Source: Pseudomonas fluorescens
Lineage (GTDB): Bacteria; Pseudomonadota; Gammaproteobacteria; Pseudomonadales; Pseudomonadaceae
DNA: 64,000 nt
Assembly (NCBI RefSeq): GCF_000730425.1
Contig: NZ_CP008896.1
Location: forward strand, 4,712,001 to 4,776,000
Reading direction: 5' to 3'
Position 1 is the stretch's first letter; the number at the start of each line of letters is the position of its first letter. The position numbers and the translations under genes are program-made. This document shows, piece after piece, positions 49,719 to 56,206 of this stretch. The notes beneath the pieces are model-generated. The model searched no databases and had not been told where the DNA came from. It worked only from the letters and a program-made list of their open reading frames with translations.

Positions 49719-49819
49719 CGTAGGCTTCGACCGGGTTAACCTGGTGCTGGCCGCAAGCCGAGAAAAACGGATTGCGAATGACCTGGCCCGCGTGTTTGAA
49801 CGTCAACTCTTTCATACCA
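49719..49819 (-). pseudogene. 5' fragment of a gene cut by the outer transposon
   Basis: ATG 49819 follows a strong GGAGG site and opens MKELTFKHAGQVIRNPFFSA then CGQHQVNPVEAY. A stop arises where the transposon end begins. The layout (short beta start, a C near residue 21, DP/NPVEAY) suggests a small plasmid-type protein. The 3' part may be in the frame left of 37586. Confidence 0.55.
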
Positions 49820-49863: not shown

Positions 49864-50235
49864 TCACAGGGTGAACGGTGCGGCGGCGTAGCCGTCGAGC
49901 TGGGCGATTGCTTGTGCGCGCATTGCGCGAATTTCATATGCGGCGGTGTTGTAGTAGTAACCGCCAAATTCGCTTGTGTGGGACTCGTAAAACTCGATCA
50001 GCTTGAGTGCCTGCAAGGGTGTCGGAAGAACTTGGCCAGCCACCAAAATGCAAGGCGGCTCATCGATGCCGGGTTCGTCCATGTTTACCTCGTTGTACGC
50101 GTCCACATTCATGGATTTGAGGCAATCCGCGATGCGCTGTGCCTCTACCCGCTGTTCGGGCGCGTGCCAGTTCTCGCCTAATGCGAATGCGACTAGGGCG
50201 GTGATGTGCGTGTCGCTGACGATGGTTACGCTCAT
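49864..50235 (-). CDS. Unknown plasmid-type protein, 123 residues
   Basis: I chose ATG 50235 because it follows the conserved TCTGCGAAGGA leader tail; a frame extending 43 codons further runs through that leader. Soluble and helical (ITALVAFALGENWHAPEQRV, then TPLQALKLIEFYESHTSEFG). Not recognised. It is the first of four genes in this block behind the same kind of leader. Confidence 0.6.
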   Translation of the reverse strand: MSVTIVSDTHITALVAFALGENWHAPEQRVEAQRIADCLKSMNVDAYNEVNMDEPGIDEPPCILVAGQVLPTPLQALKLIEFYESHTSEFGGYYYNTAAYEIRAMRAQAIAQLDGYAAAPFTL

Positions 50236-50528: not shown

Positions 50529-50981
50529 TTAGGCGGTCGCTACTTGCGCCGCGAGGAGATTCGGCGCAGCTGCGCGAACGATGGCAACAGCATCGGCGTG
50601 AGACATGGTGTATTCAGCCGAGAAACGGAAATAGTGGCGACCGAGGCGAACATAGATCCGGGTGACTCGCCCGTTAGTGCGCTCGCTCATTTTGAATGAT
50701 GAGGCGTCGCAGTCATGAACCCAGCCCATGGGAGGGAGCATGTTGAGCGCGTCGTCGTAGGCTTCTGCATCAATCAGGATGGGTGCCTCTTTGCTGAGCG
50801 CTTCGATCTTGGCGACAGCTTCATCACTGGTGATGATTTCCATGCCCGGATAACGGCCGGCGAGCTTTTCAAGGTTGGCCCCGCATTGGTCAACCCATTC
50901 GCCCGAGGCGGATTTTTCGGCGTAGGCCCAGACCCAGTGTTGGCCCGGTTGGTAGAAAACGTGCTCGGTGGTAGTAGTCAT
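50529..50981 (-). CDS. Unknown protein, 150 residues, paralogue of the 142-residue gene
   Basis: The N-terminus HVFYQPGQHWVWAYAEKSAS and the C-terminus CDASSFKMSERTNGRVTRIY match the gene at 54191-54619 (VFYVPGQTSIIDYARE and QCDSFKL…GNVTRIF). The two are paralogues within this block. No known function. It starts behind the full shared promoter and leader. Confidence 0.65.
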   Translation of the reverse strand: MTTTTEHVFYQPGQHWVWAYAEKSASGEWVDQCGANLEKLAGRYPGMEIITSDEAVAKIEALSKEAPILIDAEAYDDALNMLPPMGWVHDCDASSFKMSERTNGRVTRIYVRLGRHYFRFSAEYTMSHADAVAIVRAAAPNLLAAQVATA

Positions 50982-51060
50982 GATGTTGCCTCTTTCGCAG
51001 ATGGCCCCGGAGCGGTTGCCGCCGCGTATTCCGGGGTGTCGAGGCAGTATTGCTTCGACA
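50982..51060 (-). promoter_or_regulatory. Structured leader, copy 2
   Basis: Hairpin 1 (51038-51059) pairs GTCGA-GCA with TGC-TCGAC. Hairpin 2 has outer CCCCGGA/TCCGGGG (51005-51036) and inner GCGG-CGGCAA-CCGC. Then come TCTGCGAAAGAGG and the start. Confidence 0.75.
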
Positions 51061-51065
51061 TGGTT

Positions 51066-51119
51066 ATTATCTCAAACCACGTCTTTACCGTCAACTGTTT
51101 GTAAAATCTAATTTTACAA
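51066..51119 (-). promoter_or_regulatory. Shared-type promoter with upstream palindrome, copy 2
   Basis: On the minus strand TTGACG (51089-51094) and GATAAT (51066-51071) are 17 bases apart. Directly upstream of -35 is a palindrome with arms TTGTAAAA and TTTTACAA (51099-51119). A strong sigma-70 promoter with a likely operator or UP-like element. Confidence 0.8.
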
Positions 51120-51123
51120 TATA

Positions 51124-51354
51124 CTAATATCCATTAGGCAACTTTGGGTAGGCTTTCCATATCCTGACCATGAAGGGACGATCCCAGTGATTGCATCCTG
51201 AATGCTGCATGGCTTCGGGTTCTGCTACCCCTTTAGCGATTAAGTCCTGGGCAACCTGTATGTGCCTGGTGAGGCGTTTGCCGTCCAGACTTACAAGCAG
51301 CCCTATTAGCACTGTGATAATTGGGATAGCAAACCAGATGATCTTCAACGACAT
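51124..51354 (-). CDS. Small membrane protein, 76 residues
   Basis: One N-terminal transmembrane helix (IIWFAIPIITVLIGLLVSL, residues 4-22), then a soluble tail with a CNHWDRPFMVRIWKAYP end. The perfect palindrome at 51377-51394 lies 23 bases upstream. Not recognised. Confidence 0.6.
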   Translation of the reverse strand: MSLKIIWFAIPIITVLIGLLVSLDGKRLTRHIQVAQDLIAKGVAEPEAMQHSGCNHWDRPFMVRIWKAYPKLPNGY

Positions 51355-51376
51355 AATGCCTACTCCATTCCCCTAC

Positions 51377-51394
51377 TTTCTCGCATGCGAGAAA
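51377..51394. promoter_or_regulatory. Perfect 18-bp palindrome TTTCTCGCATGCGAGAAA
   Basis: It lies ahead of the 76-residue membrane gene. A 16-bp version (TTCTCGCACGCGAGAA) lies at 55670-55685. Likely a binding site for a dimeric regulator or a partition protein. Confidence 0.65.
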
Positions 51395-51420
51395 CCAAAT
51401 TTAGAACATCCCTTAGCGTA

Positions 51421-51443
51421 AAGCCCCGCTTTAGCGGGGCCTT
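51421..51443 (-). terminator. Terminator behind the 118-residue gene
   Basis: AAGCCCCGC and GCGGGGCTT-like arms around TTTA form a strong stem, 6 bases beyond the minus-strand stop. Confidence 0.75.
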
Positions 51444-51448
51444 ACCGT

Positions 51449-51805
51449 TTACTCCTGATCCCTTCTTACTTCGTCCATGCATTCACTTTCAGCCTGCTCA
51501 GCCTCTGCGATTGTCTCATCATCGATCTTGATCCGGCGAACCCACAGCGCTTGCTGAAACGCGAATTTGTCAGCGCCTTCGAGCTTATCCAGTTCATTGC
51601 GAAGGCCGCGAAGCAAGATGGCCTCGTACAACTCAAAGTAACAGCCACAGCAACGGCTAGCCTGCTTCTGGTGAGCGTCGATGACTGCTGCGGGATCGTA
51701 GTCGGATGCTGGAGCATCACCGTTAGGGCGACCGTTCCAAAAGGCGAAAAGGTCATGATGGGAAAGGAAGTTTTCAACGCTGGTGATCTGAGCTGCATTA
51801 GACAT
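51449..51805 (-). CDS. Unknown protein, 118 residues
   Basis: Soluble and helical with a CCGCYFELYEAILLRGL segment near the middle and an acidic C-terminus (AEQAESECMDEVRRDQE). Not recognised. It has its own shared-type promoter and leader and its own terminator. Confidence 0.6.
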   Translation of the reverse strand: MSNAAQITSVENFLSHHDLFAFWNGRPNGDAPASDYDPAAVIDAHQKQASRCCGCYFELYEAILLRGLRNELDKLEGADKFAFQQALWVRRIKIDDETIAEAEQAESECMDEVRRDQE

Positions 51806-51878
51806 GGTGTATCTCCTTCGCAGATTTACTGGAGCGGTTGCCGCCGCTTTGCCCAGTGTCGAGGCTGACTGCTTCGAC
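51806..51878 (-). promoter_or_regulatory. Structured leader, copy 3
   Basis: Hairpin 1 at 51858-51878 (GTCGA/TCGAC). Hairpin 2 has outer ACTGG/CCAGT (51828-51857) where other copies have CCCCGG-type stems, and inner AGCGG-CGGCAA-CCGCT. Then come TCTGCGAAGGAG and the start. The changed outer stem keeps pairing. Confidence 0.75.
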
Positions 51879-51884
51879 GGGGTT

Positions 51885-51943
51885 AGTGTCTCATTTGCCT
51901 AGCCGCGTATCAACTATTTGTAAAATCCAATTATACAAATAGT
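51885..51943 (-). promoter_or_regulatory. Shared-type promoter with upstream palindrome, copy 3
   Basis: On the minus strand TTGATA (51908-51913) and GACACT (51885-51890) are 17 bases apart. The palindrome upstream has 10-bp perfect arms ACTATTTGTA/TACAAATAGT (51913-51943). It sits between this promoter and the divergent toxin promoter, so one protein could control both. Confidence 0.78.
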
Positions 51944-51945
51944 TT

Positions 51946-51974
51946 TTGCCAAGGTGTGATTTATACGCTACAAT
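51946..51974 (+). promoter_or_regulatory. Promoter of the toxin-antitoxin pair
   Basis: TTGCCA and TACAAT are 17 bases apart. The toxin ATG lies 6 bases behind -10, so the transcript would start at or next to the start codon (leaderless). Confidence 0.65.
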
Positions 51975-51980
51975 GCACCT

Positions 51981-52283
51981 ATGAAAACGATCAAACAAAC
52001 CGCGACGTTTCGCACTTGGGAAAGCAAGCTCAAAGACCGGACCGCAAAGGCCGCGATTGCCGCTCGGATCATCCGGGTAGCAAACGGACTGATGGGGGAT
52101 GTTTCCCCAGTTGGTCAAGGCGTTAGCGAGTTGCGTATTCACTATGGGCCGGGGTATCGGGTGTATTTTCAGCAGCGCGGCGATGAGCTGGTAATTTTGC
52201 TGTGCGGAGGCGATAAGGCCACGCAATCCCGCGATATTGAGACGGCTAAAATCCTTGCAAAAGATTGGAGCGACAATGAATGA
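51981..52283 (+). CDS. RelE/ParE-superfamily toxin (addiction-module killer protein)
   Basis: 100 residues: TFRTWESKLKDRTAKAAIAA, then GVSELRIHYGPGYRVYFQQR and LVILLCGGDKATQSRDIETA. This pattern is that of the TIGR02683-type RelE/HigB relatives, which cut mRNA. It comes before the antitoxin and overlaps it by 4 bases. Confidence 0.88.
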   Translation: MKTIKQTATFRTWESKLKDRTAKAAIAARIIRVANGLMGDVSPVGQGVSELRIHYGPGYRVYFQQRGDELVILLCGGDKATQSRDIETAKILAKDWSDNE

Positions 52284-52573
52284 AAGAGCCACTTTATGAC
52301 TACGACCCAGCGGCGGCGCTGGTTGATCCTGAAACCATTGCCGTGTTCATGGCTGACGCCTTTGAAACTGGTGACGCGGGCCACATCGCTAAAGCGCTCG
52401 GCATAGTTGCCAGAGCCAAGGGCATGACCGAAATTGCCAAGGAATCCGGCCTGTCCCGCGAGATGCTTTATCGGTCATTCAGCGAGAAAGGGAACCCCAC
52501 GCTGAAAACCATGTTGGCCGTGATGCGCGCCGTTGGTGTGGATATGACAGCCCGTCAGCACGCCCCTTCCTGA
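52280..52573 (+). CDS. Antitoxin of the RelE-type pair (XRE-like)
   Basis: 97 residues with a HTH in the C-terminal half (MTEIAKESGLSREMLYRSFS, then TLKTMLAVMRAVGVDM). This is the addiction-module antidote type that pairs with the preceding toxin and represses the promoter. Start by ATGA overlap. Confidence 0.88.
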   Translation: MKEPLYDYDPAAALVDPETIAVFMADAFETGDAGHIAKALGIVARAKGMTEIAKESGLSREMLYRSFSEKGNPTLKTMLAVMRAVGVDMTARQHAPS

Positions 52574-52611
52574 TCAGGTTTTGAGCCGGTGTGCTTGACG
52601 CCGCTGGCTTT

Positions 52612-53104
52612 CTGATCTGCTCCGAGTGCTGAGCGTTAGAGCGGGAAATAAACGCCCCTGACAGCGCTCGCGCAGCGAGCCTCAAAACCCTTCGCCCTGG
52701 AGCGCGCTGCCGGTGGTGGATCTGCTCGTCGGCTTCGGTTGGTCGCGGTAAGCCCGTTCTATCCAGAGACGGGCCGCGTGCAAGGTGACGTGGAATACCG
52801 CAGGGCAGTTTCACCGCCCGAGGATATGCCGCGAAAGCACCTTGCACGCAAGGCACGGCGGCGGATAGAACATCGGGGCGTGCGCGACCAAACGATGACG
52901 GCGGGCCACCTGGTAACTCGCGGATGGGTGGGGGCAAACCGTCCTGCAGGACGGTGCGCAGGTCGCTTGCGACCGGAGGCAAGCGGAGCGCGCAGCCCGT
53001 TTACGGGCGAAGGCGTGAGGATGGAAGCCCGAAGGGCCAAGCCCCGGCGCGCTCTTGGCCGGGGCTTGGTTCACGACAGCCGCTGAGGCGCAGCCGAGCA
53101 CGCC
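52612..53104. repeat. 493-bp noncoding direct repeat, copy 1
   Basis: It is about 97% identical to 55716-56206. Both copies hold several hairpins: GGGC/GCCC near 52804, CGTCCTGCAGGACG near 52940, GGTCGCTTGCGACC near 52960, and a long stem CCAAGCCCCGG/CCGGGGCTTGG near 53037-53069. Frames across it are not supported as genes. It may encode a structured RNA or be a recombination or maintenance site. Confidence 0.75.
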
Positions 53105-53113
53105 AAGGGATCA

Positions 53114-53719
53114 TTAAAGGGGCAGCCATTTAGTGAGCCATGCGTGATTCAACGGGCTGCAAGACCGCACTGCAACACAGCCTGATTTCCCTTCCAAAGC
53201 AACAACCGCCGTATGACCTTCAAGAATGTAGGCAGGACCGCTGACGCTATGGCGTTCCGGATCTGCATCAGGAAAGGGAACGTAAATGACCAGATCACCT
53301 GGTTTGACGTGACCGTTCCAAAGCCTGATTTCCCGTTGGGCCAAACGGTTTTGGCTTAAGCCCCATTTCCTATAATCCGCAGTTTCTTGGCAGGCCGGGC
53401 ATTTCCATATGTAGGTGATCGACTCATCATCATCCGGTGTTTCCAGTAGATTTAAATCAGCCTCATTCGACGCAGCAAAGCAAACCGGGCAAATGGCTGT
53501 GCCCGACTGGGGGAAGATCCCAGCTTGTAGGCGCAACTCTTCATCGACAGCGGCACTCAGGTTTTTTGAAAACTCTTTAAGGCGCTTTAGCTCAGGCGTG
53601 CTGATGTAACTGAGATTCATCCAGATGCCAACCGGTGGTCGCTCAAGATCGTCAAGTAGATCTTCTAAGATTTCCTCGGCGTTTATTTCCGGATCCGGGG
53701 TATTGATCAGCGGTTCCAT
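53114..53719 (-). CDS. Unknown protein with a zinc-ribbon-like segment, 201 residues
   Basis: The acidic N-terminus (INAEEILEDLLDDLERPP) is followed by two CxxC pairs (AICPVCFAAS near residue 78 and WKCPACQETADY near residue 110), a likely zinc ribbon, and a C-terminal SH3-like segment (VKPGDLVIYVPFPDADPERH). Not recognised as a named family. Confidence 0.55.
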   Translation of the reverse strand: MEPLINTPDPEINAEEILEDLLDDLERPPVGIWMNLSYISTPELKRLKEFSKNLSAAVDEELRLQAGIFPQSGTAICPVCFAASNEADLNLLETPDDDESITYIWKCPACQETADYRKWGLSQNRLAQREIRLWNGHVKPGDLVIYVPFPDADPERHSVSGPAYILEGHTAVVALEGKSGCVAVRSCSPLNHAWLTKWLPL

Positions 53720-53757
53720 TGCGAGCCCTGCCCATGTGTAGTTAGTCGGAAGTAATC

Positions 53758-54060
53758 TTACTTCGATTTTGGCTGGTCATAAGGTGCAGCCATCTGGCGC
53801 ACCTTCTCTGCCAGCTCGGGCGGGAGCCAGACCATAACCGGTACAAGTTCCTCCGCGTCGTGTTGTTGCAAGATTCCGCGGACGCGCTTCACTGCTGCAT
53901 AAACGAGCTGTCGTGAATCGCCAGTCTTCTTGGCCAAGTCCGAGGGGCGAACCCCGTCGACCAAAACCGCACGGGCCAGCTCGACGGTTCCGATGTTCAA
54001 GCCGCGAAAGGCGTCCTTGAACTCGTCCCACTGTTCGGCGGTGTATTTTGGTTGCTGCAT
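53758..54060 (-). CDS. KorA/TrfB-like transcriptional repressor
   Basis: 100 residues. The pattern YTAEQWDEFKDAFRGLNIGT, VELARAVLVDGVRPSDLAKK, TGDSRQLVYAAVKRV matches the HTH of IncP KorA (TrfB family), which represses replication and maintenance operons of plasmids. Its binding site here is unknown; the palindromes beside the three shared promoters are the obvious candidates. It follows a 36-residue ORF. Confidence 0.75.
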   Translation of the reverse strand: MQQPKYTAEQWDEFKDAFRGLNIGTVELARAVLVDGVRPSDLAKKTGDSRQLVYAAVKRVRGILQQHDAEELVPVMVWLPPELAEKVRQMAAPYDQPKSK

Positions 54061-54171
54061 TCAAGCTCTCCTAGATGGGGGTGGGTGCGCGTCTTGTAGT
54101 CGCTTTCCTTTCTTGATGTCGTCCCACTCGTACGTTTCAGAACGGGGGTTATTCACTTGATTATTGGGCAT
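54061..54171 (-). CDS. 36-residue ORF ahead of the KorA-like gene
   Basis: ATG 54171 follows GGGAG with 7-base spacing and opens MPNNQVNNPRSETYEWDDIK, ending KGKRLQDAHPPPSRRA. Its stop directly adjoins the KorA-like start (TGA-ATG), suggesting coupled translation. It could be a leader peptide or a short protein. Confidence 0.45.
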   Translation of the reverse strand: MPNNQVNNPRSETYEWDDIKKGKRLQDAHPPPSRRA

Positions 54172-54190
54172 TGCCCCACTCCCGGCATGA

Positions 54191-54619
54191 TCAAATCGTA
54201 GTAGCGCCTGTGCGGCTCTGTGAGAGCCTTTCTACGATGACCTGGTGCGGAAGGTTGGCCAAACCAAGGAACGTCCAATACCGACCATCCCAGTGCGCAA
54301 AAATACGGGTCACGTTCCCGACTTCGCAGCACTCAAGTTTGAATGAATCACACTGCTCGTCGGCTGCGAAGTCGGACACCGCAAGGTGACTGAATGCGTA
54401 ATCGTATCGGGTAGCGGTTGTTTCAGTTGGCCGGGTTCCGTGGGTGGCCTCTTGATCGAGCAAAAATGCTTCCTCGTTGCCAAGTACCGCGCCGGGGTGG
54501 CTGATCTGTAGTTCAGGCAGCATCAGCAACCGGCAGCGGGTGGCCCATTTGCCGGGGGCAATTTCCCGGGCGTAGTCAATGATCGAGGTTTGGCCGGGTA
54601 CATAGAAAACTTTAGACAT
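54191..54619 (-). CDS. Unknown protein, 142 residues, paralogue of the 150-residue gene
   Basis: It shares VFYVPGQ at the N-terminus and a CDSFKL…GNVTRIFAHWDGRYW segment at the C-terminus with the gene at 50529-50981. Not recognised further. GTAGGAG lies ahead of the ATG, behind a hairpin. It probably belongs to the DUF932 transcript. Confidence 0.62.
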   Translation of the reverse strand: MSKVFYVPGQTSIIDYAREIAPGKWATRCRLLMLPELQISHPGAVLGNEEAFLLDQEATHGTRPTETTATRYDYAFSHLAVSDFAADEQCDSFKLECCEVGNVTRIFAHWDGRYWTFLGLANLPHQVIVERLSQSRTGATTI

Positions 54620-54645
54620 GGCTGAATCTCCTACCGCAACAGGTT

Positions 54646-54666
54646 CCGGGCGCTATAAGCGCCCGG
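54646..54666 (-). promoter_or_regulatory. Leader hairpin of the 142-residue gene
   Basis: CCGGGCGC/GCGCCCGG stem around five bases, between the DUF932 stop and the GTAGGAG site. It has the same place as the other leader hairpins but lacks the inner CGGCAA stem. Confidence 0.55.
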
Positions 54667-54675
54667 TGTTGGTGG

Positions 54676-55512
54676 TTACGCTGCTTGCTGGCCAGCGCGC
54701 AGCGCCTCGGCCATGGCCCACAGGGCGCGATTGAGTTTCACGTCCTGATCAATGCCGTTCACTTGACGGGTAGTGGTGCGGCGGCCTTGTTTGTTACGGC
54801 CACGCAATCCGCCTCGTATGGTGTTTTCCTGAATGCGGTTGAAGGTCGTCCAGAGGTCGTCGGAACGATCCTCGGAACGGCGAGCTGAAAGCAGTTGGCT
54901 GGCTGTGACCGGGGCGGGGCCTTCGCGTACATCGTAGCGATAGGCAAGCGCGCCTTGAGCTAAGGCCAGTTGCTCGAACTCGCGCAGCTTCGTTTGCTTC
55001 ATGATGTCGCGCTGTTCTTCGATGGCGTCAAACTGGTTCAGCACTTCATAAGCGCCTTCGATGACTTCGCCTACGATGTCAGCGCTGCCCATGTGGCGCA
55101 CTTTCTGATCCATGGTCGCATCGCCCAGGACAAGACCATTGGCGCACACAAAGCGAAAGCAACCGGCCATCATTTGATAACTGCTAGTGCCATCATGGCT
55201 GTTCAGCAGAATGATTTCGTTAGCCTCTTTGCTCATGATCTGGTCAGCATGGCGCAGGCGAATCATGTGCTTTGTGTGGTCGCGCTTTTCTTCATTGCGT
55301 ACGCGGGTTTGGCAAGCCATGAAAGGCAGGAAACCTTCGCGGCGCAGGCTTTCCAGCACGTCAACGGTAGGGATGTACAGATAACGATCGGAGCGGCTTT
55401 GGTGGGCTTCGTTAGCGAAGATCGACGGCGCAACGCGGGCGATTTCGTCGTTAGTCAGAGGTACGTCGCTGCGGATCATTTGCGGGTTACGGAAATTGCT
55501 GGATAGACGCAT
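54676..55512 (-). CDS. DUF932 plasmid/phage-type protein
   Basis: 278 residues of the DUF932 family, common on plasmids and in phages. Family-like segments are YIPTVDVLESLRREGFLPFM, HTKHMIRLRHAD, IILLNSHDGTSSYQMMAGCF and FVCANGLVLGD. The function is unknown; maintenance or anti-defence roles are only guesses. It has the shared promoter, palindrome and leader. Confidence 0.85.
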   Translation of the reverse strand: MRLSSNFRNPQMIRSDVPLTNDEIARVAPSIFANEAHQSRSDRYLYIPTVDVLESLRREGFLPFMACQTRVRNEEKRDHTKHMIRLRHADQIMSKEANEIILLNSHDGTSSYQMMAGCFRFVCANGLVLGDATMDQKVRHMGSADIVGEVIEGAYEVLNQFDAIEEQRDIMKQTKLREFEQLALAQGALAYRYDVREGPAPVTASQLLSARRSEDRSDDLWTTFNRIQENTIRGGLRGRNKQGRRTTTRQVNGIDQDVKLNRALWAMAEALRAGQQAA

Positions 55513-55589
55513 TTTGAAACTCCTTCGCAGATTTCCCCGAGGCGGTTGCCGCCGCCTGTTTCGGGGTGTCTTAGCGGTATTGCTTCGAC
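55513..55589 (-). promoter_or_regulatory. Structured leader, copy 4
   Basis: Hairpin 1 at 55568-55589 is weaker here (GTCGAAGC/GC…GAC). Hairpin 2 has outer CCCCGA/TCGGGG (55535-55566) and inner AGGCGG-CGGCAA-CCGCCT. Then come TCTGCGAAGGAG and the start. Confidence 0.75.
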
Positions 55590-55595
55590 GTGGTT

Positions 55596-55649
55596 AGTAT
55601 CTCAAATCCCGCCCAAGTCGTCAATCTTTTGTAAAATCTAATTTGTCTA
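55596..55649 (-). promoter_or_regulatory. Shared-type promoter with upstream palindrome, copy 4
   Basis: On the minus strand TTGACG (55619-55624) and GATACT (55596-55601) are 17 bases apart. Upstream, TTGTAAAATCTAAT (from 55629) matches copy 2 but the second arm is degenerate (TTTGTC). Confidence 0.75.
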
Positions 55650-55685: not shown

Positions 55686-55715
55686 TTCCGCTTTTTCCTT
55701 GACACCGAGTCCGTG

Positions 55716-56206
55716 CTGATCTGCTCCGAGTGCTGAGCGTTAGAGCGGGAAATAAACGCCTTTGACAGCGCTCGCGCAGCGAGCCTCAAAACCCTTCGCC
55801 CTGGAGCGCGCTGCCGGTGGTGGATCTGCTCGTCGGCTTCGGTTGGTCGCGGTAAGCCCGTTCTATCCAGAGACGGGCCGCGTGCATGGTGTCGTGGAAT
55901 ACCGCAGGGCAGTTTCACCGCCCGAGGATATGCCGCGAAAGCACCTTGCAGGCAAGGCAGGGCGGCGGATAGAACATCGGGGCGTGCGCTACCAAACGAT
56001 GACGGCGGGCCACCTGGTAACTCGCGGATGGGCGGGCAAACCGTCCTGCAGGACGGTGCGCAGGTCGCTCGCGACCGGAGGCAAGCGGAGCGCGCAGCCC
56101 GTTTACGGGCGAAGGCGTGAGGATGGAAGCCCGAAGGGCCAAGACCCGTCGCGCTCTTGGCCGGGGCTTGGTTCACGACAGCCGCTGAGGCGTAGCCGAG
56201 CACGCC
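55716..56206. repeat. 491-bp noncoding direct repeat, copy 2
   Basis: It matches 52612-53104 apart from scattered substitutions and a 2-bp difference. The GGTCGC/GCGACC stem keeps pairing (loop TC instead of TT); the long CCAAG stem has mismatches here. The two copies bracket the KorA-like, 142-residue and DUF932 genes. Confidence 0.75.

What the first reader, a model, noticed from the sequence alone, without database searches (positions are those of the whole stretch)
50982..55649. A shared structured 5' leader with covarying stem on several plasmid-block genes
Four genes (starts 50235, 50981, 51805 and 55512) have the same leader: hairpin 1 (GTCGA-GC…GC-TCGAC; seen in three of the four), hairpin 2 with an outer stem and an inner GCGG-CGGCAA-CCGC stem, then TCTGCGAAGGAG and the start. 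The outer stem changes sequence but still pairs: CCCCGA/TCGGGG, CCCCGGA/TCCGGGG, CCCCGGC/GCCGGGG, ACTGG/CCAGT. Such compensation implies selection for RNA structure. Three further genes (starts 49819, 50488 and 54619) have simpler hairpins in the same place. I know no named riboregulator of this form.
Basis: partly seen in the sequence, partly recalled or inferred. Interest (0 to 1): 0.82.

Follow-up and report, generated by a model that had tools for sequence, protein, structure and literature searches.

The report
Shared RNA hairpin on plasmid-entry genes
The four gene leaders are copies of a module that a family of conjugative plasmids puts in front of genes that enter a new cell first; its promoter part is known, but a hairpin in it with a nearly unchanging loop on changing, still-pairing stems seems not to have been described and probably acts in the messenger RNA.

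Summary
Four leaders carry hairpin 2 (H2) and three carry hairpin 1 (H1); one H1 is partly broken. They lie in a remnant leading region of an IncP-9/IncN/IncW-type (MOBF) plasmid in a Pseudomonas chromosome, with a KorA/ArdK-family repressor and DUF932 gene.

The RNA part appears new. H2 has a near-invariant hexaloop, CGGCAA, on covarying stems; a tree-aware null never reached the observed covariation score (0 of 500). H2 sits about 28 nt before start codons, with or without a promoter. In 7 plasmids it precedes 32 of 91 leading-region genes, 1 of 21 neighbouring genes and 0 of 85 others. No Rfam family matches.

It most likely acts in the mRNA at translation start or in mRNA stability, probably through a loop-binding factor. 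That mechanism is inferred: the wobble test for which strand folds is inconclusive, and predicted ribosome-site accessibility does not rise with H2. Whether the original CUP papers noted these hairpins could not be checked.

The parts
55520..55566 (-). H2 hairpin (CGGCAA loop) and TCTGCGAAGGAG of the DUF932 gene leader
   Evidence: 58.9 bits
51813..51857 (-). H2 hairpin and Shine-Dalgarno of the gene starting at 51805
   Evidence: 56.9 bits
50990..51036 (-). H2 hairpin and Shine-Dalgarno of the gene starting at 50981
   Evidence: 56.1 bits
50243..50287 (-). H2 hairpin alone, inside an operon, before the gene starting at 50235 (no H1, no promoter)
   Evidence: 58.6 bits
55568..55589 (-). H1 hairpin, partly broken (GTCGAAGC...GCTAAGAC)
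   Evidence: read from sequence
51858..51878 (-). H1 hairpin (GTCGAAGC...GCCTCGAC)
   Evidence: read from sequence
51038..51059 (-). H1 hairpin (GTCGAAGC...GCCTCGAC)
   Evidence: read from sequence
55596..55624 (-). promoter TTGACG-17-GATACT
   Evidence: consensus match; the number found in the region is close to that in shuffles
51885..51913 (-). promoter TTGATA-17-GACACT (not listed by the scan)
   Evidence: read from sequence by comparison with the other two leaders
51066..51094 (-). promoter TTGACG-17-GATAAT
51091..51119 (-). AT-rich inverted repeat TTGTAAAATTAGATTTTACAA next to -35; copies at 51910-51938 and (half kept) 55621-55649; candidate operator of the KorA/ArdK-like repressor
   Evidence: family D6; operator role inferred
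53758..54060 (-). KorA/ArdK-family repressor gene
   Evidence: Pfam PF16509 48.2 bits; PDB KORA-domain proteins 7bbq and 7bca, E 8e-13 and 4e-12
54676..55512 (-). DUF932 gene, first gene behind the H1-H2 leader
   Evidence: Pfam PF06067 172.4 bits
54191..54619 (-). uncharacterised gene with a simple hairpin upstream (54620-54675)
51449..51805 (-). uncharacterised gene behind an H1-H2 leader
   Evidence: no Pfam family
50529..50981 (-). uncharacterised gene behind an H1-H2 leader; paralogue of 54191-54619
49864..50235 (-). uncharacterised gene behind the H2-only leader; a look-alike gene in a P. syringae plasmid sits behind a full promoter-H1-H2 leader
   Evidence: look-alike read

Best explanation
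The block is a stranded piece of the leading (establishment) region of an IncP-9/IncN/IncW-type plasmid. Its genes are driven by CUP-type promoters under a KorA/ArdK-family repressor, expected to fire in a burst when the plasmid enters a repressor-free cell. The transcripts begin with H1, a hairpin at or near the 5' end. Promoter-proximal genes, and some internal genes, then carry H2 about 28 nt before the start codon: outer stem, 4-5 nt bulge on the 5' side, inner stem with the near-invariant CGGCAA loop, then GCGAAGGAG or GCAGGAG. H2 works at RNA level as a portable module of translation initiation or mRNA stability for establishment genes, most likely by presenting the CGGCAA loop to an RNA-binding factor. 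Because no obvious RNA-binding protein is shared by the plasmids compared, that factor is more likely supplied by the host, or else H2 works by its shape alone. Shown: identity and location of the module, covariation, loop conservation, spacing to the start codon, concentration in leading regions. Inferred: action as RNA, transcript start at H1, the burst of expression here, translation or stability as the output, the binding factor.
For: Leading-region genes and synteny: DUF932, SSB, DNA methyltransferase, TrfB/KorA, with stb, SprT-like and mobF genes further on, in varying subsets. KorA/ArdK-family protein in the window. Loop census: 74 CGGCAA hairpins. CGGCAA found 15-55 nt before SD+start has a 4-bp Watson-Crick stem in 74 of 93 unique cases in 15 sequences, shuffled hexamers (some possibly drawn twice) in 0 of 263. 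Covariation: all 11 pairs of A1 change on both sides; tree null 0 of 500 for the score with all pairs, the outer stem alone, and all 39 elements. H2 precedes 32 of 91 leading genes, 1 of 21 neighbouring, 0 of 13 rep, 0 of 18 stb, 0 of 33 tra, 0 of 5 sprT-like, 0 of 8 TA and 0 of 8 other genes in 7 plasmids. Distance to the start codon is the same with a promoter (median 28, sd 3.4, n=58) and without (27, sd 3.3, n=30), so H2 stays with the ribosome site when there is no promoter. H1 starts 4-8 nt after the -10 box in 75 of 80 promoter-bearing elements, near the expected 5' end. Whole records of five plasmids: 39 matches, all on the strand of the leading-region genes. No T-run terminator is scored on the coding strand at these hairpins.
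Against: The strand test does not favour RNA: G-U versus A-C mismatches are 11:7 in H2 outer stems (a set with about 16 likely chance matches) and 12:23 in H1, the latter leaning the other way, though many A-C cells look shared by descent. Predicted Shine-Dalgarno accessibility is not raised by H2 (mean 0.465 native, 0.506 with H2 shuffled; native higher in 18 of 50), so no simple opening of the site is predicted. 59 of 91 leading genes have no H2, and 13 more loops had no annotated start in range. The -10 to H2 distance is also fairly constant (median 40, sd 4.7). One full leader in the P. syringae plasmid lies away from the main block. No trans-acting partner was identified. No expression data were available. 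The inner stem was a selection criterion for A1 and for the 39; the outer stem was not, except that three stem-poor elements were among the eight dropped from A1, which one search put back.
Confidence: 0.5

Rival explanations
1. The hairpins act in DNA: in the transferred single strand, which is the template strand of these genes, H1 and H2 fold and serve entry (single-strand promoter of the Frpo type, priming signal, or protein mark).
For: H2 copies are concentrated in leading regions and on one strand. From gene order (inference) the transferred strand is the template strand. Mismatch counts do not exclude it; H1 leans to it. The DNA strand also folds into hairpins there. The pLS20 establishment leaders raise the same open question (PMC8708921).
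Against: In DNA folds of the three window leaders none has both promoter boxes mostly paired: the -35 box is largely paired in one (55512) and the first two -10 bases in another (51805), otherwise pairing is mostly below 0.5. Frpo has both boxes in its stem-loop (PMC8744291). H2 keeps its distance to the start codon even without a promoter, which a DNA role would not require.
Confidence: 0.2
2. H2 is a passive mRNA insulator: it shields each cistron from upstream structure and nucleases by shape alone, with no partner.
For: Among genes with at least 40 nt of upstream space in five plasmids, 12 of 47 leading genes have another strong hairpin where H2 is missing, against 4 of 30 other genes.
Against: Shape alone would not fix a hexaloop. 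The loop-agnostic census gives the same loop.
Confidence: 0.2
3. The leaders are recent duplicated copies with no pairing constraint, or recombination handles that shuffle establishment genes.
For: Two window leaders are 80% identical over 125 nt. Recombination between CUP repeats has been proposed (PMC5371602; PMC3490853).
Against: Recombination needs sequence identity, not preserved pairing; covariation beats a null that keeps relatedness.
Confidence: 0.07
4. Riboswitch, attenuator or intrinsic terminator.
For: Structured 5' leader just before the ribosome site.
Against: No terminator scored on the coding strand at the hairpins, no Rfam match, unrelated genes behind it. Small for a known aptamer (recalled knowledge). 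Alternative folds were not searched for systematically.
Confidence: 0.03

Closest known systems
CUP elements and the ArdK (KorA-family) regulon of IncN pKM101/R46 and IncW R388 leading regions (Delver and Belogurov 1997, known here only through citing papers)
   Same: Repeated promoter-bearing upstream modules before leading-region operons, KorA/ArdK-family repressor in the same block, similar neighbouring genes. An IncN-typed plasmid (L103) and R388 (L106) themselves carry H2.
   Different: The passages read describe CUP as promoter and repressor sites; none mentions an RNA hairpin, a conserved loop, or H2 before genes that have no promoter. The window copy is a Pseudomonas chromosomal remnant.
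EGeRS1 leaders of the pLS20 family (Bacillus; PMC8708921)
   Same: Repeated, highly structured regions just upstream of the ribosome sites of establishment operons; RNA or ssDNA action left open by the authors.
   Different: About 325 nt or more, Gram-positive, no H2-like loop mentioned in the two sections read; no common origin implied.
Frpo/ssi single-strand promoters of F-like plasmids (PMC11541004, PMC8744291)
   Same: Structured, repeated, in leading regions, gene orientation such that the transferred strand is the template.
   Different: Both promoter boxes lie inside the folded DNA in Frpo; in none of the three window leaders are both mostly paired, and H2 occurs without a promoter.

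Membership tests
CUP/ArdK-controlled leading-region regulon | Several copies of one upstream module before different leading-region genes | tested here: met
   Three promoter-bearing copies plus one H2-only copy in the window; 6 to 9 H2 matches in each of pWW0, an IncN plasmid, a P. syringae plasmid, R388 and pMBUI4 (E up to 0.01)
CUP/ArdK-controlled leading-region regulon | ArdK/KorA-family repressor encoded in the block | tested here: met
   53758-54060: PF16509 48.2 bits; best solved relatives are 7bbq and 7bca, KORA domain proteins
CUP/ArdK-controlled leading-region regulon | Repressor site next to the -35 box | tested here: inconclusive
   An inverted repeat abuts the -35 box in the window leaders, but published ArdK sites are direct repeats of variable sequence (PMC9723621); binding not testable
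CUP/ArdK-controlled leading-region regulon | Lies next to stb, oriT and mobF in a conjugative plasmid | tested here: not met
   stb and mobF follow in the plasmid relatives. In the window's genome the only TrwC-family match is far away, at 2.17 Mb, so this is a remnant
CUP/ArdK-controlled leading-region regulon | Transient expression on entry | not testable with these tools
   needs mating experiments
Frpo single-strand promoter | -35 and -10 boxes both inside a folded single strand | tested here: not met
   DNA folds and pair probabilities of the three window leaders: none has both boxes mostly paired, though one box is partly paired in two of them; only these three were tested
Any Rfam family | Match at the curated score | tested here: not met
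   0 matches in the window. In five relative loci the only match is an integron leader in R388. Below threshold: RsmY-like 28.1 bits at 51420-51478, not on the leaders
Intrinsic terminator / attenuator | Hairpin followed by a T-run | tested here: not met
   no site on the - strand at any H2 or H1; one + strand match overlaps H1 of the 50981 leader

The most novel reading that the evidence does not exclude
Conjugative plasmids of the IncN, IncW and IncP-9 type share a post-transcriptional regulon. A hairpin with a fixed CGGCAA loop, copied before many establishment genes, is read by one RNA-binding factor, which would give these plasmids a second, translational layer of control on top of ArdK during entry into a new cell.
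Probability: 0.3. Interest if true: 0.8.

Novelty: new variant of a known kind. Interest (0 to 1): 0.58.

Why it matters
Leading-region genes enter first when a conjugative plasmid moves into a cell, and relatives of this block sit on plasmids that carry resistance genes (for example). In the papers seen here these genes are understood through promoters (CUP/ArdK, Frpo). A conserved hairpin before many of their ribosome sites would be an unexamined control layer, and it gives a simple sequence tag (CGGCAA hairpin about 28 nt before a start codon) for finding candidate establishment genes. It also makes a testable case of the RNA-or-ssDNA question left open for the pLS20 leaders.

Tried and rejected
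Rfam at curated and permissive thresholds: nothing on the leaders. The RsmY-like hit lies at a separate hairpin.

Phage and viral sources: BLAST against phages gave 7 records with short matches at E 0.8; a pattern scan of viral contigs gave none.

Which strand folds: mismatch asymmetry was inconclusive.

Shine-Dalgarno opening: not predicted; accessibility is slightly lower with native H2.

Plasmid-encoded antisense RNA with a matching TTGCCG hexaloop: the TTGCCG loops in the census (70) do not outnumber the CGGCAA loops whose antisense they are (74), so no sign of a separate RNA.

Shared plasmid RNA-binding protein: seven clusters occur in all six plasmids compared (pWW0 and the Enterobacter plasmid incomplete). 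By position I read them as KorA/ArdK, StbB, the coupling protein and the relaxase, plus antisense frames. One 16-member cluster in five plasmids seems to come from translating the leader itself (my reading).

Host range: R1 found 12 of 398 Pseudomonas genomes (own included), and only the own genome among 369 class, 398 phylum and 293 order samples (strict filters; small plasmids may be missing from such assemblies, and IncN plasmids of enterobacteria were found only by BLAST). The pattern scan of genome contigs (96 stretches, 80 listed) hit many phyla; I used only the Pseudomonas and Stutzerimonas loci, looked at one other (L067, no such element) and did not examine the rest.

Literature: searches listed no paper that, by title or passages seen, describes the hairpin; only CC-licensed PMC papers are covered. 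The 1993 and 1997 CUP papers are not held.
Full report
OBSERVATION. Read as RNA, three run: promoter, H1 (GTCGAAGC...GCCTCGAC), H2 (outer stem, 4-5 nt bulge on the 5' side, inner stem GCGG/CCGC, loop CGGCAA), TCTGCGAAGGAG (TCTGCGAAAGAG in one), start. The fourth (gene 50235) has H2 only and follows another gene directly. MFE folds give H2 in all four; z-scores of whole leaders range from -1.15 to -4.59, so one leader (51805) is not unusual in energy. H1 before 55512 is damaged in the middle. The three simpler hairpins are real and stable but do not match the H2 model. The gene given at 49819 starts at 49815 and has 33 codons.

WHAT THE BLOCK IS. BLAST with one leader against plasmids gives 221 records at E up to 10 and 174 at E up to 0.01. 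In the rows listed, Pseudomonas plasmids including pWW0 match mostly over two thirds to nearly all of the leader, and E. coli, Klebsiella, Salmonella and other enterobacterial plasmids over about 31% of it, the H2-to-ribosome-site part, at E 2e-4 to 9e-3. One of the latter, pECAZ146_3, is typed IncN and carries six H2 elements (L103). In the relatives the leaders stand before DUF932, SSB, DNA methyltransferase, DUF4942 and small unknown genes, in varying subsets, with stb, SprT-like (not R388) and mobF genes further on. The window has a KorA/ArdK-family repressor (53758-54060), DUF932 and a toxin-antidote pair. Its genome has no nearby relaxase of the family, only a TrwC-type gene at 2.17 Mb. 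I read the block as a stranded leading region with transposon genes on both sides (my reading of the ORFs), in a single-contig genome. The closest plasmid matches cover at most 27% of the block.

LINK TO THE LITERATURE. Passages of PMC6289460 and PMC5371602 describe CUP, conserved upstream repeats, as ArdK binding sites with promoters before leading-region operons of IncN plasmids, citing Delver and Belogurov 1997. Passages of PMC9723621 and PMC3937220 show that ArdK represses five R388 promoters and binds direct repeats near -35. A word search of their main texts gives no 'hairpin' and no 'leader'. PMC11541004 passages treat Frpo; its main text has no hit for IncN, IncW, hairpin or Pseudomonas. 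PMC3490853 and PMC8744291 were seen in passages. Of PMC8708921 I read the outline and two sections: structured repeated leaders of establishment operons in Bacillus plasmids, with RNA or ssDNA action left open. The original CUP papers were not available, so I cannot say whether they noted the hairpins.

THE HAIRPIN IS A FAMILY. A loop-agnostic census over the window and 13 plasmid loci counted hairpins with 4 Watson-Crick pairs (at least 3 G-C). Hexaloop CGGCAA: 74 hairpins, 71 of them before SD plus start. Its antisense TTGCCG: 70 and 20. Next hexaloops: 12 in all, 5 near a start; tetraloops reach 30 and 13. The SD rule is loose: 404 of all 1999 hexaloop hairpins pass it. The eight-base loop GCGGCAAC (56) is the same element counted again. 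The plasmids are partly related, so the 74 are not independent. Free of selection on stems: CGGCAA 15-55 nt before SD plus start has a 4-bp stem in 74 of 93 unique cases, shuffled hexamers in 0 of 263. Inner stems seen with this loop before SD include GCGG/CCGC, ACGG/CCGT, GAGG/CCTC, GGGG/CCCC, AGCA/TGCT, TGCA/TGCA, AGGA/TCCT and AGCG/CGCT. H1 also changes sequence while pairing; 44 distinct best hairpins were seen, a few of them poor.

COVARIATION. On 31 hand-picked elements (8 of 39 left out, three of them poor in outer stem), all 11 pairs change on both sides, with score 0.409 against 0.137 in shuffles. With a null that re-places the inferred substitutions on the tree, 0 of 500 reach the observed score; the same for the outer stem alone and with class II removed. 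With all 39 elements, aligned without structure, the outer stem still exceeds the null in score and in double changes (0 of 500 each) and in percent paired (1 of 500 reach it), and all six slid versions are lower on all three measures. The trees rest on the same short alignments.

WHERE IT SITS. In seven plasmids H2 lies 10-75 nt before 32 of 91 leading-region genes, 1 of 21 neighbouring same-strand genes, and 0 of 13 rep, 18 stb, 33 tra, 5 sprT-like, 8 toxin-antitoxin and 8 other genes; spacing 21-39 nt, median 28. Thirteen further such loops had no annotated start in range (region labels are mine). Counting only genes with at least 40 nt of upstream space in five plasmids: 27 of 47 leading genes have H2 and 12 more have another strong hairpin; of 30 other genes none has H2 and 4 have a hairpin. 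Of 88 unique class I elements, 30 have no promoter-like sequence, yet their distance to the start codon is the same (27 against 28); where a promoter is present its distance to H2 is also fairly constant. Whole-record scans of five plasmids give 39 matches, all on the strand of the leading-region genes. Not every match is in the main block: in the P. syringae plasmid one full promoter-H1-H2 leader lies near a restriction-endonuclease gene, before a gene that resembles the window's 49864-50235 gene. H1 begins 4-8 nt after the -10 box in 75 of 80 promoter-bearing elements.

DISTRIBUTION. The model finds 12 of 398 Pseudomonas genomes (own included), with 2-9 copies each, apart from the own chromosome on contigs of about 5 to 250 kb; broader samples (369, 398 and 293 genomes) give only the own genome. 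No Rfam family covers it.

MECHANISM. The tie to the ribosome site, the presence inside operons without a promoter, and H1 near the expected transcript end point to RNA. A fixed loop on a changing stem is what a bound partner would leave. Against this: mismatch types do not single out the RNA strand (11:7 and 12:23); predicted Shine-Dalgarno accessibility is slightly lower with native H2 than with it shuffled; no shared RNA-binding protein was found among six plasmids. In folds of the other strand as DNA no window leader has both promoter boxes mostly paired, although the -35 box of the 55512 leader and two -10 bases of the 51805 leader are. That argues against an Frpo-like promoter in these three, not against other DNA roles. 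I therefore hold the RNA module at 0.5, a DNA role at 0.2 and a passive insulator at 0.2.

VERDICT. Its promoter frame is known (CUP/ArdK), and its hairpin family appears undescribed in the sources I could search.

Noticed in passing
window 52594-53104 and 55698-56206: Two repeats of about 510 nt (95% identical over 300 nt and 98% over 173 nt) flank the KorA/ArdK-DUF932 half of the block; nature not worked out.
   Followed up: no
window 50529-50981 and 54191-54619: The two genes encode paralogous proteins (30% identity over 122 aligned positions) with no Pfam or NCBIfam family; one has an H1-H2 leader, the other a simple hairpin.
   Followed up: partly
window 51420-51478: Sub-threshold RsmY-like match (28.1 bits, gathering 57) at a GC-rich hairpin at the end of the 51805 gene; probably a terminator.
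   Followed up: no
window 51981-52573 (+): Gp49-like (PF05973) protein and addiction-module antidote (PF21716) pair in opposite orientation inside the block; pairs annotated RelE/ParE toxin plus antidote lie beside the leading regions of pWW0 and pDTG1.
   Followed up: no
L101 3160-3212, L111 1681-1733, L105 1291-1344 and others: A second class of H2, with a near-continuous stem and the same CGGCAA loop, lies upstream of the DUF1173 gene in L101 and L111 and of an unnamed gene in L105.
   Followed up: partly
NC_019341.1 32083-32128 (-), in L169: Full promoter-H1-H2 leader before a gene whose product resembles that of window 49864-50235, which has H2 only; suggests the promoter half can be lost or gained separately.
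   Followed up: partly
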